Origin: Caulobacter sp. Root343
Lineage (GTDB): Bacteria; Pseudomonadota; Alphaproteobacteria; Caulobacterales; Caulobacteraceae
DNA length: 64,000 nucleotides
Assembly: GCF_001425745.1 (NCBI RefSeq)
Contig: NZ_LMDF01000007.1
Coordinates: 310,899 to 374,898 of the forward strand
Direction of reading: 5' to 3'
The position numbers and the translations under genes are program-made. The notes below the pieces were generated by a model, which made no database searches, had not been told where the DNA came from, and was given only the letters and a program-made list of their open reading frames with translations. Positions 30,843 through 63,054 of the stretch are shown piece after piece. The number at the start of each line of letters is the position of its first letter. Position 1 is the first letter of the stretch.

Positions 30843-31521
30843 ACCGATCCTGGCCCTGCGCGGGGTCGAGCGCGTCTACAAGACCGAGGCCGGCGACTTG
30901 CCGGTGCTGCGCGGCGTCGATATCGACGTCTATCCGGGCGAAGTTGTCGGCCTGATCGGTCCTTCGGGTTCGGGCAAATCCTCGCTGCTGCATTCGGCGG
31001 GGCTGCTGGAGCGTCCCGACGGTGGTCTGGTGGCGCTGGAGGGCCGCGACTGCTCCAAGCTGTCTGAGCGCGTGCGCACCCGCATCCGCCTGGGCACGGT
31101 CGGCTTCGTCTACCAGTTCCATCACCTGCTGCCCGAGTTCTCGGCGCTCGAGAACGTGGCCATGCCACTGACCATCGCCGGCAAGAGCCGTCGCGAGGCC
31201 GAGGCGCGGGCCAAGGAGCTGCTGGAAAGCCTGGGCCTGGGCCCGCGCATGAACCACCAGCCGGCCCAGATGTCTGGCGGCGAACAGCAACGCGTGGCCA
31301 TCGCCCGGGCGCTCGCCAATCGTCCCAAGCTGCTGCTGGCCGACGAGCCGACCGGCAATCTCGATCCCGCCACCTCCGCGGCCGTGTTCCAGTCGCTGTA
31401 CCAGGTCGCCCGCCAGCAAGGCGTCGCCGCCCTTATCGCCACCCACAACATGGAACTGGCCCGCTACATGGATCGCGTCATGGCCCTCAGGGACGGCCAC
31501 CTGGAAGCCAAGCGCTTCTAG
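30835..31521 (+). CDS. lolD: Lipoprotein-releasing ABC transporter ATP-binding protein LolD
   Basis: LolD powers lipoprotein release. The 228-residue product has Walker A GPSGSGKS (residues 42-49), the Q-loop in [20 protein letters not shown], the ABC signature [15 protein letters not shown], and Walker [32 protein letters not shown] is typical of the LolD motif that contacts LolC. It starts 8 bp before the lolC stop. Its own stop shares a CTAG with the convergent outer-membrane gene. Confidence 0.95.
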
Positions 31522-32756
31522 AACTGGCGACGGAAGGCGGTCTGCAGAACCGTCTGGCCTTGCCGTGGCGTCAGGCCCAGCCGTGCGCGGTCGCGGCGGA
31601 AGCTGTCGATATGTTGCGCCTCGAACACGATCTGGCTGTCGGGCCTGATGTCCCAACGATAGGCCGCCAGCCCAGACCAGCCATGCTCGGCATTGTTGTC
31701 GGTGGCCTTGTTGGTCCGGTCGGTCGTCGAGAAGTGGTCATAACGCAGCGTCGCCGAGCCGGGCCCGAGCGCCTTGTTCGCTGAGACATAAGCGGCCTCG
31801 AAGCCCATGTCGGCCCAGACGCCGTTGGCGTTCGAATAGCCCATCAGGGTCTCGCCGGTCATGACCTGGGCCTTCACGGCGACGGCGTCGAGGTCCAGCC
31901 GCATGCCGAGGTTCCAGAACCGCGTTTCCCACGACCATTCGCGGTTGGCGTCGACGCTGGTTCGGTCACCTTCGTTCTCATACCTGAACAGGTCGATGGC
32001 CAGGACGGAGGACGGCCGCCACTCCACACGGCCGTAGTAGCCGATCCGCCCATCGATCTCGGCCAGGGGCGTCGTCGACGGCGCCTGACGCTGGGCCATT
32101 CGCGCGCTGAGCGGCGGCAGCGGAAAGCGGCCGAACACCGGCGACTTGAGGTCGTGCAACGCCCAGCCGCGGAACGTCAGCTCGGTGCCGGCGGTGTCGC
32201 CGTGCTGGAAGCCGCCGGCGGTGAGGCTGAAGGTCTGGCCCGCCAGGGTGCGCCGGATCGTGGCTTCGACGCCGACGACCTTGGTCTCCTCGGCCACCCA
32301 GGTATTGATCGCCGATGGGGTGATGGTGTCGGCCACGGACCAATCCAGGCCATCGTGTTCCAGTGAAATCGGCGGGTAGAAAACCCCGGCGCGGGCCGAC
32401 AAGCGCAGCGCCGAGCCCGGTTGGGAGCGGTAGGCCAGGTAGCCTTCGCCTAGATCGACCAGATGCCGTTGGCCGTCCTGGCTCTCGCCGACGATTACGG
32501 CCGATACGGTATCGGAAAAGCGAGGATTCCAGACCAGGGCGGCCTCGCCCAGGCGCACGCCTTGGCGGCCGTCGCCGAAGCGCGCCTTGCCGACGCGACC
32601 GTCGATCCAGGAGGCCTCGCCATCAGCGGCGGCGAGGCGCAGGTCGACAAGCCCAGAGAAAGTGTCGCGCGAGAACAGCTCCGCCCGCGCCTGCGCCGAA
32701 CCGGCGCTCGCCAAGACCAGGGCCGTTCCCACGACGGTCGAAGTCAGTCTCCCCAT
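31518..32756 (-). CDS. Predicted outer-membrane beta-barrel protein
   Basis: The 412-residue product has a Sec signal ([20 protein letters not shown], likely cut after AQA). The rest is a series of alternating hydrophobic and polar strands, such as [20 protein letters not shown] and [15 protein letters not shown], ending in ...TAFRRQF. A terminal phenylalanine is the usual signal for Bam-mediated outer-membrane assembly. The family is not recognised; it resembles a porin-like barrel. It follows the nucleoside hydrolase gene by 34 bp on the same strand and converges on lolD, sharing the CTAG stop. Confidence 0.72.
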
Positions 32757-32790: not shown

Positions 32791-33750
32791 TTAAAGCAGA
32801 GCCTGCTTCATGGCGGCGTAGAAACCCGCGCGGTCGATCTTCTTGATCACCCGCGCATTGGGCGGCCGACGTTTCAGGGCAGGATCCGCCAACTCGATAT
32901 CCGGCAGGATCGCGTGCGAGACGCTGAGATAGCCACGTGTCAACTCGCCCATCGTCTCGACGTCGACGACACAGTCCTCGGCCTCGAGGATCAGGGTCTC
33001 GTCCAAGGCGATCGCGCAGGTGAGGGCGTCGGGATGCAGGCTGCCATCCAAGCCCTCGGTCTCACGGGCGAAGGCGAGGGAGGCGCGGTTCACGTCCGTG
33101 AAGAAGCGGGCCTTGGGCGTGTCCAAGGCCTCCAACTCGGCTAGCCGCGCGGTGCTCCACAGGCCGTCTTGCAACGTCAGGGTCCAGGTGGCGATCGACA
33201 GGTTGAAGCCGGCGTTGACGACGATCTTGGCCGCTTCCGGATCGACATAGAAATTGTACTCGGCCGCCGGCGTGACGTTGCCGACCCCATTGTCCGTCCC
33301 GCCCATGATCCACAGGTGCTTCAAGGCCTGGGCGATGCGCGGCTCGCGCAGGTAGGCGAGGGCGATGTTGGTCAGGGGGGCTTGAGCGATCAGGGTGATC
33401 TCACCGGGCGCCGCCATGATCCGGGCCACGAGTTCGTCGACGGCATGACCTTCGGCGGGGCGCTGGGCGGTCTTGGCGAAGTCGCTGTCGCTCATACCGT
33501 CTTGACCGAAGACGTAGGCGGCGTCGAGCGGCGCGCGGGTAAAGGGCGCTTGGGCGCCCAGATAGACCGGGACCTGGCCGGCCTTGCCGCATCGATCCAG
33601 CGTCACCAGCGCGTTCTCGGCGTGCTGGGTGAAGCCGACATTGCCATGGGCGATGGTGATGGCCTCGACGCTGACGCCGGGGCGGGTGAGGGCCAGCATC
33701 AGCGAGAAGACGTCGTCGCCGGCGGTGTCGGTGTCGATGATCAGGCGCAT
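32791..33750 (-). CDS. Inosine/uridine-preferring nucleoside hydrolase
   Basis: The enzyme splits the N-glycosidic bond of ribonucleosides. The 319-residue product begins with the calcium-binding signature DTDTAGDDVFSLMLAL (family consensus DxDxxxDD). It also has the conserved LIAQAPLTNIALAYLREP and the IMGG segment followed by EYNFYVDPEAAKIV (the N-x-DP-EA motif). These are sufficient for the family; base preference cannot be told. It is the first gene of a two-gene minus-strand unit with the outer-membrane barrel, which suggests nucleoside scavenging. Its start lies about 105 bp from the divergent sidA LexA box. Confidence 0.93.
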   Translation of the reverse strand: MRLIIDTDTAGDDVFSLMLALTRPGVSVEAITIAHGNVGFTQHAENALVTLDRCGKAGQVPVYLGAQAPFTRAPLDAAYVFGQDGMSDSDFAKTAQRPAEGHAVDELVARIMAAPGEITLIAQAPLTNIALAYLREPRIAQALKHLWIMGGTDNGVGNVTPAAEYNFYVDPEAAKIVVNAGFNLSIATWTLTLQDGLWSTARLAELEALDTPKARFFTDVNRASLAFARETEGLDGSLHPDALTCAIALDETLILEAEDCVVDVETMGELTRGYLSVSHAILPDIELADPALKRRPPNARVIKKIDRAGFYAAMKQALL

Positions 33751-33853: not shown

Positions 33854-33868
33854 GAACATCTTGTGAAC
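33854..33868 (+). promoter_or_regulatory. LexA box (SOS operator) before sidA
   Basis: GAAC-ATCTTGT-GAAC is the exact inverse of the alphaproteobacterial LexA consensus GTTC-N7-GTTC. Extra GAAC half-sites lie at 33844-33847, 33870-33873 and 33888-33891. It is 49 bp before the sidA ATG. Confidence 0.85.
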
Positions 33869-33917
33869 AGAACAAAACCAGAATATGGAACAAAACAAGA
33901 AATCTGTGGAGGTTCCG

Positions 33918-34007
33918 ATGATCCGTATCGCTCGTGAGTCTTTGGCGCTTGTGTCGGTCGCCAGCTTCGTCTGGATGATGTGTACGGTCGCCCAACTGGT
34001 GGCTTGA
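33918..34007 (+). CDS. sidA: SidA-like SOS-induced cell division inhibitor (29 aa)
   Basis: This is a 29-residue ORF with a good ribosome site (GGAGG, 5 nt before the ATG). It begins [12 protein letters not shown], runs into a single hydrophobic helix containing SFVWMMC, and ends AQLVA. Length, membrane-helix layout and LexA control match SidA of Caulobacter crescentus. SidA is an inner-membrane peptide that blocks division by acting on FtsW/FtsN during the SOS response. The identification rests on remembered family features, not a search. dnaE follows 36 bp later on the same strand with no terminator between them. Confidence 0.85.
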
Positions 34008-34043: not shown

Positions 34044-37475
<3,432 letters not shown>

Positions 37476-52038: not shown

Positions 52039-52881
52039 ATGCGCAAGCTTGGTCTGATCGCCGGCGGCGGAGCGCTTCCCGTCGAGCTGGCCGCCCATTG
52101 CGAGGCCGCCGGACGGGCCTTCTCGGTCATGCGCCTGCGCAGCTTCGCCGACCCCACCTTGAGCCGCTATCCCGGCCAGGAGGTCGGCCTCGGCGAGTTC
52201 GGCAAGGTGTTCAAGGCTCTGCAAGCCGAAGGCTGCGAGGTCGTCTGCTTCGCCGGCAATGTGAAGCGGCCTGACTTCGCCGCCCTGATGCCGGACGCCC
52301 GAGGTCTGAAGGTTCTCCCCGGCCTGATCGTCGCCGCGCGCAAGGGCGACGACGCCCTGCTGCGGCGGGTTCTGGACGAGTTCGAGAAGGAAGGCTTCGA
52401 GATCGAAGGCGCCCATGAGGTGATGGGCGAGATGACCCTGCCGCGCGGACGGCTGGGCAAGCTGACGCCCGCCGCCGAGCACATGGCTGACATCGACAAG
52501 GCGCTGGTGGTGGCGCGTGAGATCGGCCGGCTGGACGTGGGGCAGGGCGCCGTGGTCTGCGACGGCCTCGTCCTGGCCGTGGAGGCCCAGGAGGGCACCG
52601 ACGCCATGCTCCGCCGCGTCGCCGAGCTTCCCCAGGCCATCCGGGGCTCGGCCGAGCGTCCTCGCGGCGTGCTGGCCAAGGCTCCAAAGCCGATCCAGGA
52701 GACCAGGGTCGACCTGCCGACGATCGGCGTCGCCACCATTCAGCGCGCCGCGCGTGCGGGCTTGGCCGGCGTGGTCGGCGAAACCGGTCGATTGCTGGTG
52801 GTCGACCGCGACGCGGTGATCGCCTGCGCCGACGACCTTGGCCTCTTCGTGCTGGGGGTCGATCCGCAGGGACGCCAGTGA
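52039..52881 (+). CDS. lpxI: UDP-2,3-diacylglucosamine pyrophosphatase LpxI
   Basis: LpxI hydrolyses UDP-2,3-diacylglucosamine to lipid X, the step done by LpxH in E. coli; it was originally described in Caulobacter. The 280-residue product begins MRKLGLIAGGGALPVELAAH and includes VVCFAGNVKRPDFAALMPDA. The C-terminal catalytic domain has GQGAVVCDGLVLAVEAQEGT and LAKAPKPIQETRVDLPTIG, features of the LpxI (DUF1009) family. No metallophosphoesterase motif of LpxH is present. It lies between lpxA and lpxB and overlaps lpxB by 4 bp. Confidence 0.94.
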   Translation: MRKLGLIAGGGALPVELAAHCEAAGRAFSVMRLRSFADPTLSRYPGQEVGLGEFGKVFKALQAEGCEVVCFAGNVKRPDFAALMPDARGLKVLPGLIVAARKGDDALLRRVLDEFEKEGFEIEGAHEVMGEMTLPRGRLGKLTPAAEHMADIDKALVVAREIGRLDVGQGAVVCDGLVLAVEAQEGTDAMLRRVAELPQAIRGSAERPRGVLAKAPKPIQETRVDLPTIGVATIQRAARAGLAGVVGETGRLLVVDRDAVIACADDLGLFVLGVDPQGRQ

Positions 52882-62289: not shown

Positions 62290-62994
62290 TTAGTGATACC
62301 GGCGGATCAAACCCACCAGCTTGCCCTGAACCTCGACCTGGTCGGGGCCGAAGATGCGGGTCTCGTACTTGGGATTGGCCGCTTCCAGGGCGATCGAGCC
62401 GCCCTTCTTGCGCAGGCGCTTCAGGGTGGCTTCCTCGCCGACCAGGGCGACGACAATCTCGCCCGAGGTGGCGGTGTCGCCCTTCTTGATGATCACATAG
62501 TCGCCGTCGAGGATGCCGGCCTCGATCATCGAGTCCCCTTGCACCTCGAGGACATAGTGCTCGCCGCCGCCCAGCATCGACTCGGGCACCGGAAGGCGCT
62601 CGCGCTCGTGCTGAATGGCGTCGATCGGCGTGCCGGCGGCGATCTTGCCCAGGATCGGCAGCTCGCGCGTGTCATTGGCGGGAGCGGTCGCCGTCTGAGC
62701 CGGAGGCGGGGCGCCGCCGCCTTCGAACACCTGCGGCCGGAACGCGCCACGGCCCTTGGGCGGCGCGGCCGTCGTGGCCTGCTGTGGCAGCTTCACCACT
62801 TCCAAGGCGCGGGCCCGATGGGCGAGACGACGGATGAAGCCGCGCTCTTCCAGCGCCGTGATCAGCCGGTGGATGCCCGACTTCGAGGCCAGATCCAGGG
62901 CCTCCTTCATCTCGTCGAACGAGGGGGAGACGCCGGTCTCCTTGATCCGCTCGTGGATGAACATCAGCAGTTCGTGCTGCTTACGGGTGAGCAT
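62290..62994 (-). CDS. lexA: SOS repressor LexA
   Basis: LexA represses DNA-damage genes and self-cleaves when stimulated by RecA. From ATG 62994 it is 234 residues. It has an N-terminal winged helix with [20 protein letters not shown] and the recognition-helix region [21 protein letters not shown] long Pro/Ala/Gly-rich linker (about 70-110) follows. The S24 peptidase domain has cleavage site A120-G121 (KIAAGTPID), Ser155 ([10 protein letters not shown]) and Lys192 (EATLKRL). The upstream frame to 63126 crosses the LexA box and is not used. The box at 63040-63054 indicates autoregulation. Confidence 0.97.
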
Positions 62995-63039: not shown

Positions 63040-63054
63040 GTTCTCTAGGCGTTC
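63040..63054 (-). promoter_or_regulatory. LexA box in the lexA promoter
   Basis: GTTC-TCTAGGC-GTTC fits the alphaproteobacterial consensus GTTC-N7-GTTC exactly. It lies 45 bp before the lexA start codon, the expected place for autorepression. Confidence 0.88.

What the first reader, a model, noticed from the sequence alone, without database searches (positions are those of the whole stretch)
33854..34007. LexA-controlled 29-codon gene matching SidA
A 29-aa ORF with a strong ribosome site (GGAGG) lies 49 bp after a perfect GAAC-N7-GAAC LexA box. It encodes a short basic N-terminus and one hydrophobic helix. Size, layout and control match SidA, the SOS division inhibitor of Caulobacter, a gene too small for usual gene calling.
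Basis: partly seen in the sequence, partly recalled or inferred. Interest (0 to 1): 0.85.

Follow-up and report, generated by a model that had tools for sequence, protein, structure and literature searches.

The report
SidA, a tiny SOS division brake
This 29-residue gene is the Caulobacter cell-division brake SidA, switched on by DNA damage, and look-alike small genes sit in front of the same replication gene in a number of other alphaproteobacteria, where they seem to have been overlooked.

Summary
Confirmed. ORF 33918-34007 is SidA: NCBIfam NF033228 (equivalog) matches all 29 positions, 74 bits, cut-off 35. It is under purifying selection and lies 36 nt before dnaE. In the window this is ordinary: a known protein in another Caulobacter genome.

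Following it outward gave less ordinary results. (2) dnaE-anchored sampling found a divergent SidA in 25 of 25 genomes of a sister genus. LexA box plus small one-helix ORF before dnaE occurs at 35 of 60 loci of four other families of the order (f2 0 of 8) and 19 of 108 loci of the class; shuffles gave 0 and 0.05. (3) 8 of 10 such peptides have no NCBIfam match, yet several groups score above shuffles against SidA-family profiles, and the groups that could be compared show silent-codon excess.

I propose an older alphaproteobacterial SOS module. Division block outside Caulobacter is inferred, not shown.

The parts
33854..33868 (+). LexA box 1, perfect GAACN7GAAC; overlaps the putative -35
   Evidence: this exact 15-mer in 21 of 64 distinct f1 promoters, all close Caulobacter; L031-L038 have no perfect box; L076 has a different perfect box over its TTGAC
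33870..33884 (+). LexA box 2, GAACAAAACCAGAAT, one mismatch in the last half-site
   Evidence: pair with box 3 at 17-18 nt in 54 of 64 distinct f1 promoters
33888..33902 (+). LexA box 3, GAACAAAACAAGAAA, one mismatch; the counterpart is a perfect box in many other genera of the family
33861..33866 (+). putative -35 (TTGTGA)
   Evidence: by eye from the sequence and the CTTGaC/CTTGcC of relatives; the consensus scanner found no sigma-70 site
33884..33891 (+). putative -10 (TATGGAAC), 17 nt after the -35; its GAAC is the first half-site of box 3
   Evidence: by eye; the Caulobacter -10 consensus is recalled, from no call
33908..33912 (+). ribosome binding site GGAGG
   Evidence: same or similar in close relatives
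33918..34007 (+). sidA, 29 codons, [29 protein letters not shown]
   Evidence: NF033228 74 bits, cut-off 35; codon test
34044..37475 (+). dnaE, DNA polymerase III alpha subunit, 36 nt after sidA; no terminator-like site found between
62296..62994 (-). lexA, the repressor (part matched by the model)
   Evidence: converted from C7:373194-373892
63040..63054 (-). LexA box upstream of lexA (self-control, inferred)

Best explanation
The locus is sidA, encoding a 29-residue single-helix inner-membrane inhibitor of division. In undamaged cells LexA sits on a tandem operator laid over the -35, spacer and -10 and keeps the gene off. When damage activates RecA and LexA is cut, the promoter fires and SidA enters the membrane. 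It holds the late septal wall-synthesis complex (FtsW/FtsI/FtsN) inactive, so the cell elongates while DNA is repaired. The transcript may read into dnaE. Shown here: identity, coding, operator motif layout, conservation and synteny. Taken from published work on C. crescentus: SOS induction, FtsW/FtsN contact, division block. Inferred: the same action for this ortholog. The confidence below is for this. Further proposal (its odds are in the section on the most novel reading): sidA is one branch of an older alphaproteobacterial module, LexA box then a microprotein of about 30 residues then dnaE, whose other branches have drifted beyond the curated model.
For: NF033228 equivalog, full length, 74 bits. 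A SidA match in 339 of 390 family genomes at the loose limit E<=1, own genome included. dnaE in 67 of the 69 f1 loci fetched by SidA similarity (L009-L038, L061-L093, L095-L100; L092, gap about 320 nt). Tandem pair 17-18 nt apart in 54 of 64 distinct promoters. LexA motif of C. crescentus, GTTCN7GTTC, from a table in PMC9578287. Distant module: f5 13 of 13, f4 13 of 18, f3 9 of 21, f2 0 of 8, class 19 of 108; shuffled means 0.00 to 0.05; opposite strand 0. f1 profile: 8 of 8 sister-genus peptides above all 500 shuffles. f4 profile to f5, f3, class and 12 f1 peptides: combined p 6e-10, 4e-6, 1e-12, 9e-15, members not independent. Silent-codon excess in the 6 of 9 groups that could be compared. 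dnaE tree: the label needs 7 changes, shuffled mean 30.4. FtsW gene present. SidA action: passages of PMC4211646.
Against: No expression, binding or division assay could be run. The curated model does not reach beyond the family: in 398 genomes of the order its only match outside f1 at E<=0.01 is an 8-residue stretch in G396. The f1 profile does not reach f5 peptides directly (combined p 0.31); the link runs through f4. With the f4 profile 8 of 15 class peptides reach p 0.05 and 7 do not. Sister-genus g4 peptides lack the basic-acidic pair (0 of 8). 89 of 108 class loci have no perfect box within 800 nt, although LexA is found at E<=1e-10 in 106 of those 108 genomes, 103 over the cut-off; so the module is absent or unrecognised in most sampled class genomes. 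One module-bearing genome, G883, gave no LexA match. 7 of 64 family promoters show no box pair 16-18 nt apart. The -35/-10 are by eye; the scanner found none.
Confidence: 0.9

Rival explanations
1. The small ORF is a leader that controls translation of dnaE and has no action of its own.
For: It lies 36 nt before dnaE in the window and near dnaE in 67 of 69 fetched f1 loci; no terminator-like site between.
Against: In L081 a SidA with its LexA box follows an ORF that looks like RelA/SpoT by eye, and no dnaE was found in the 2.2 kb fetched. Residues are conserved, not only reading frame. SidA works in trans in C. crescentus (PMC4211646 passages). The gap to dnaE reaches 253 nt in L093.
Confidence: 0.05
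2. The LexA site serves dnaE itself, as an earlier regulon list states, and sidA is incidental.
For: PMC3323433 section 8 lists dnaE among genes reported as SOS regulated in C. crescentus.
Against: sidA moves with its box in L081; the ORF is a conserved protein. dnaE is not found as a word in the main text of the 2025 Caulobacter SOS study. Both could be true if the transcript reads through.
Confidence: 0.1
3. The protein starts at 33885 and has 40 residues.
For: In-frame ATG; an in-frame start there is kept in 17 of 29 close relatives.
Against: 12 of 29 lose it; it lies in the putative -10; no ribosome site seen in front of it by eye; the curated model is 29 long.
Confidence: 0.03
4. The peptides of other orders are unrelated one-helix peptides that took the same place by convergence.
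For: Very short hydrophobic sequences; f5 does not match the f1 profile; 7 of 15 class peptides are not above shuffles at 0.05 with the f4 profile.
Against: Same position and same control; similar length; a shared pattern, roughly [KRQ][DE]..AL..V.GF.W....W....G, in an alignment of 17 chosen peptides with a nearly ungapped core; label clustered on the dnaE tree.
Confidence: 0.25

Closest known systems
SidA of Caulobacter crescentus / C. vibrioides (NCBIfam NF033228)
   Same: 29 residues, basic N-terminus, one helix, LexA box, place before dnaE
   Different: A few residues: L105 of C. vibrioides DSM 9893 differs at I4V, L9F, A15I, S16G and Q26N
DidA of C. crescentus
   Same: Small DNA-damage-induced membrane inhibitor acting on the FtsW/I/N complex (PMC4211646 passages)
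   Different: SOS-independent, driven by DriD, binds FtsN; no sequence comparison made here
YneA (Bacillus subtilis), SosA (Staphylococcus aureus), ChiZ (Mycobacterium tuberculosis)
   Same: Damage-induced small membrane division inhibitors; YneA binds FtsW (PMC13396833, passages and part 1 of the Discussion)
   Different: YneA has a LysM domain; low-confidence published models put SidA on the other face of FtsW TM7
SulA of Escherichia coli
   Same: SOS division inhibitor in role
   Different: Acts on FtsZ polymerisation (PMC4211646 passage)

Membership tests
SidA (NF033228), window ORF | Score above the curated equivalog cut-off over the whole model | tested here: met
   74 bits, cut-off 35, positions 1-29 of 29
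SidA (NF033228), window ORF | Small protein with a short basic N-terminus and one membrane helix | tested here: met
   Sequence itself; the 15-residue hydropathy criterion is met (L052)
SidA (NF033228), window ORF | LexA/SOS control | tested here: inconclusive
   Operator motif present and conserved, lexA in the genome; binding and induction not testable
SidA (NF033228), window ORF | Contact with FtsW/FtsN and block of division | not testable with these tools
   FtsW gene present; function from published work on C. crescentus only
SidA (NF033228), one g4 and one g6 peptide of the same family | Score above the curated cut-off | tested here: not met
   26.5 and 33.9 bits against 35; E-values 4.5e-6 and 2.3e-8, so homologous but under the equivalog line
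SidA (NF033228), peptides of f3, f4, f5 and other class families | Score above the curated cut-off | tested here: not met
   No NCBIfam match at E<=1 for the 8 such peptides submitted; not filed as SidA members, only proposed as distant relatives that may work alike

The most novel reading that the evidence does not exclude
SidA is the Caulobacter branch of an ancient SOS checkpoint module of Alphaproteobacteria: a LexA box, then a fast-evolving one-helix division inhibitor of about 28-47 residues, then dnaE. It occurs in three other families of the order and in twelve of the sampled families elsewhere in the class, beyond the reach of current family models. Earlier reports of LexA control of dnaE would partly reflect this hidden gene.
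Probability: 0.65. Interest if true: 0.72.

Novelty: new member of a known kind. Interest (0 to 1): 0.55.

Why it matters
In the window the gene is known. The wider pattern would give a testable candidate for the SOS division inhibitor in alphaproteobacteria outside Caulobacteraceae, suggest that a membrane brake on septal wall synthesis is an old solution in this class, and reassign LexA sites written down for dnaE. It would also give a deep natural alignment of a minimal inhibitor of the FtsW complex.

Tried and rejected
The perfect box as evidence by itself: rejected, not above chance. The 40-residue start: rejected. A sigma-70 consensus promoter: none found. SidA on phages or plasmids: no match in phages, one Streptomyces plasmid match with E 4, taken as chance. 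NCBIfam and Pfam for ten distant peptides: two sub-cut-off SidA matches and one sub-cut-off Pfam match, VUPS E 0.016. The first profile test failed on a program option and was rerun. Structure prediction was not run: the single-protein minimum is 30 residues and I saw no way to fold a complex.

Selection to bear in mind. In one search SidA was recognised by a pattern that includes [FYL][VIL]W, so the constancy of F17-V18-W19 is partly built in; R/K6, E/D7 and S13 (54 of 54 each) are not. The 30 loci are the best matches; the 39 further f1 loci were chosen by hand. The 108 class loci are part of 183 genomes (186 with a dnaE match less G000, G067 and G390), chosen by higher dnaE score and larger genome; 75 were not looked at. 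Of 60 genomes only the 30 best loci were read, which left out all f2 genomes of that batch. The peptides are a hand-picked list of distinct ones (g4 8, f4 10, f5 7, f3 4, class 15), and the 12 f1 peptides tested with the f4 profile are the first 12 of 55 in alphabetical order. In the tree f1 rows and four f4 rows (L290-L292, L300) were labelled as module-bearing by hand. In one search the f7, f13 and f38 groups gave no comparable pair. The number 57 of 64 counts any pair 15-19 nt apart; one search separates the pairs.

Full report
WHAT IS THERE. dnaE starts 36 nt after its stop. A nucleoside hydrolase gene lies on the other strand upstream (32791-33750).

IDENTITY. NCBIfam NF033228, cell division inhibitor SidA, matches all 29 positions with 74 bits against a curated cut-off of 35; Pfam has nothing. 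Of 14 named control genomes the model rings only in Caulobacter vibrioides. Two named C. vibrioides records (L105, L109) have the gene before dnaE with the same box.

IS IT A GENE. Against 29 close Caulobacter loci the ORF has 192 silent and 67 replacement codon differences; random mutation would make 22% silent. Against 28 more distant family loci it is 227 and 311, random 16%. In a named sample anchored on dnaE and not on SidA, 14 of the 15 loci whose dnaE is over 70% identical have SidA; the other, L107, has only 42 nt upstream. None of the 9 more distant named loci (Cypionkella, Dongia, Pseudorhodobacter, a Rhodospirillaceae bacterium and one unnamed proteobacterium) has it by the pattern used or a perfect box within 800 nt (L119 has only 297 nt).

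OPERATOR. The C. crescentus LexA site is GTTCN7GTTC, the same as GAACN7GAAC (PMC9578287, table passage). A perfect match is not rare in this genome. In other genera the downstream box is often the perfect one. I read this as an old two-box operator to which close Caulobacter added a perfect upstream box over the -35 CTTG; that direction is inference. The GAAC of the third box is also the end of the putative -10. The promoter is by eye; the scanner found none. A second box within 30 nt with at most one mismatch is seen at 3 of 24 LexA-like sites of the genome, sidA's included, so tandem sites are not unique to sidA. Of those 24 sites only sidA's is followed by a hydrophobic ORF of 26-38 codons.

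HOW IT WORKS. Published work on C. crescentus, of which I read passages, gives the mechanism. SidA is SOS-induced, binds FtsW and FtsN in two-hybrid tests, and is overcome by FtsW F145L or A246T and by an FtsI change (PMC4211646). Deletion of sidA removes the filamentation of lexA mutants, and the sidA promoter is early and stronger than that of uvrA (PMC12700426). A 2026 study models SidA on FtsW TM7, opposite the YneA side, with low confidence (PMC13396833). The original SidA paper is not held. A ribosome-profiling study lists sidA among genes whose start was corrected (PMC4117421 passage), details not seen. FtsW is present in this genome. The step from these to the window gene is inference by orthology.

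BEYOND THE CURATED FAMILY. In the family 339 of 390 genomes match the window protein at E<=1. In 398 genomes of the order NF033228 matches 80 at E<=0.01, 43 over the cut-off; the one match outside the family is an 8-residue stretch. Of the 51 family genomes without a match, 16 belong to genus g4 (25 genomes). I therefore took dnaE as the anchor. All 25 g4 genomes have a dnaE match and carry a divergent SidA just upstream, recognised by eye; 4 of 25 have a perfect box. In other families of the order, the rule being a perfect box and a hydrophobic 24-50 codon ORF starting 5-90 nt after it within 800 nt of dnaE: f5 13 of 13, f4 13 of 18, f3 9 of 21, f2 0 of 8; shuffles gave none. Four f4 loci counted as negative (L290-L292, L300) have the peptide with one-mismatch tandem boxes. 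In 108 class loci, 19 have a perfect box and all 19 have such an ORF; shuffles averaged 0.05 and the opposite strand gave 0. The 19 belong to 12 families (f7, f8, f13, f20, f38, f51, f62, f71, f103, f107, f109, f112; families). A tighter rule within 500 nt gave 17 of 108 against 0.017, and 15 of 30 against 0 in the first order batch. LexA was found in 106 of the 108 class genomes, 103 over the cut-off, so lack of the module is not lack of LexA.

ARE THEY RELATIVES. With a profile of 55 Caulobacteraceae peptides, 8 of 8 g4 peptides beat 500 composition-kept shuffles; combined p is 5e-7 for f4, 1e-6 for class, 0.007 for f3 and 0.31 for f5. With a profile of f4 alone it is 6e-10 for f5, 4e-6 for f3, 1e-12 for class and 9e-15 for 12 f1 peptides. 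Members of one set are related, so these p values are too small; singly, 8 of 15 class peptides reach 0.05 and 7 do not. A basic or amide residue followed by an acid is found in 55 of 55 f1, 7 of 7 f5, 7 of 10 f4, 10 of 15 class, 2 of 4 f3 and 0 of 8 g4 peptides. An alignment of 17 chosen peptides is ungapped or nearly so in its core, mean column identity 30%. Codon differences within groups, silent to replacement: f3 210 to 19, f5 128 to 92, f4 108 to 90 and 32 to 48, g4 160 to 122, f107 8 to 0, random silent fractions 0.19-0.26; f7, f13 and f38 gave no pair. On a dnaE tree of 91 rows the module needs 7 changes against 30.4 for shuffled labels; 21 rows without it form one branch with 100% support, and the 7 class rows with it lie outside that branch (quick method, root for drawing only, deep forks weak). 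This fits an old origin with losses, for instance in f2 and part of f3.

A NATURAL SEPARATION. In L081 a SidA with its LexA box follows an ORF that looks like RelA/SpoT by eye, and no dnaE was found in the 2.2 kb read. Here the box travels with sidA.

EARLIER LITERATURE. PMC3323433, section 8 read in full, says dnaE was reported as SOS regulated in C. crescentus; given the layout here, that site is probably sidA's. The listings of searches and the passages I opened showed me no report of SidA relatives outside Caulobacteraceae or of a small LexA-controlled gene before dnaE in other orders. Three likely sources are not held, so this is not proof of absence.

NAMES. Equal contig lengths suggest that G169 is Brevundimonas terrae (201,489 bases, L090 and L112) and G268 is C. 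vibrioides DSM 9893 (584,655 bases, L025 and L105); this is inference. That f1 is Caulobacteraceae is inferred from the same named records.

VERDICT. The window feature is SidA, ordinary in itself. The tandem operator and the dnaE-linked distant relatives are the parts worth following.

Noticed in passing
window 62296-62994 (-) and 63040-63054 (-): lexA lies about 25 kb beyond dnaE with its own LexA box; in several class genomes (G798, G702, G816, G882) lexA and dnaE also lie roughly 24-27 kb apart on one contig.
   Followed up: partly
L003 (G000:C1:58506-58520): A LexA-like box GAACATACACAGAAC near an ORF that looks like mraZ by eye; ftsW is about 15 kb further on the same contig. Possible SOS input to the division gene cluster.
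   Followed up: no
L081 (G053:C9:63300-65500): A SidA gene with its LexA box after an ORF that looks like RelA/SpoT, with no dnaE found in the stretch.
   Followed up: partly
L182-L289, 500 nt upstream of dnaE: GAACN7GAAC boxes on the opposite strand in 7 of 108 class loci, none followed by a small hydrophobic ORF under the same rule.
   Followed up: no
L202 (G883): Carries the box-peptide-dnaE module, but the genome gave no LexA match at E<=1e-10; the assembly has about 630 contigs and 10% contamination.
   Followed up: no
window 31518-32756 (-): A 412-codon ORF with no Pfam match at E<=1 and no NCBIfam match at E<=10.
   Followed up: no
window 52369-52383 (-): A third perfect GAACN7GAAC, GAACTCGTCCAGAAC, without the A+T flank; probably chance.
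   Followed up: no
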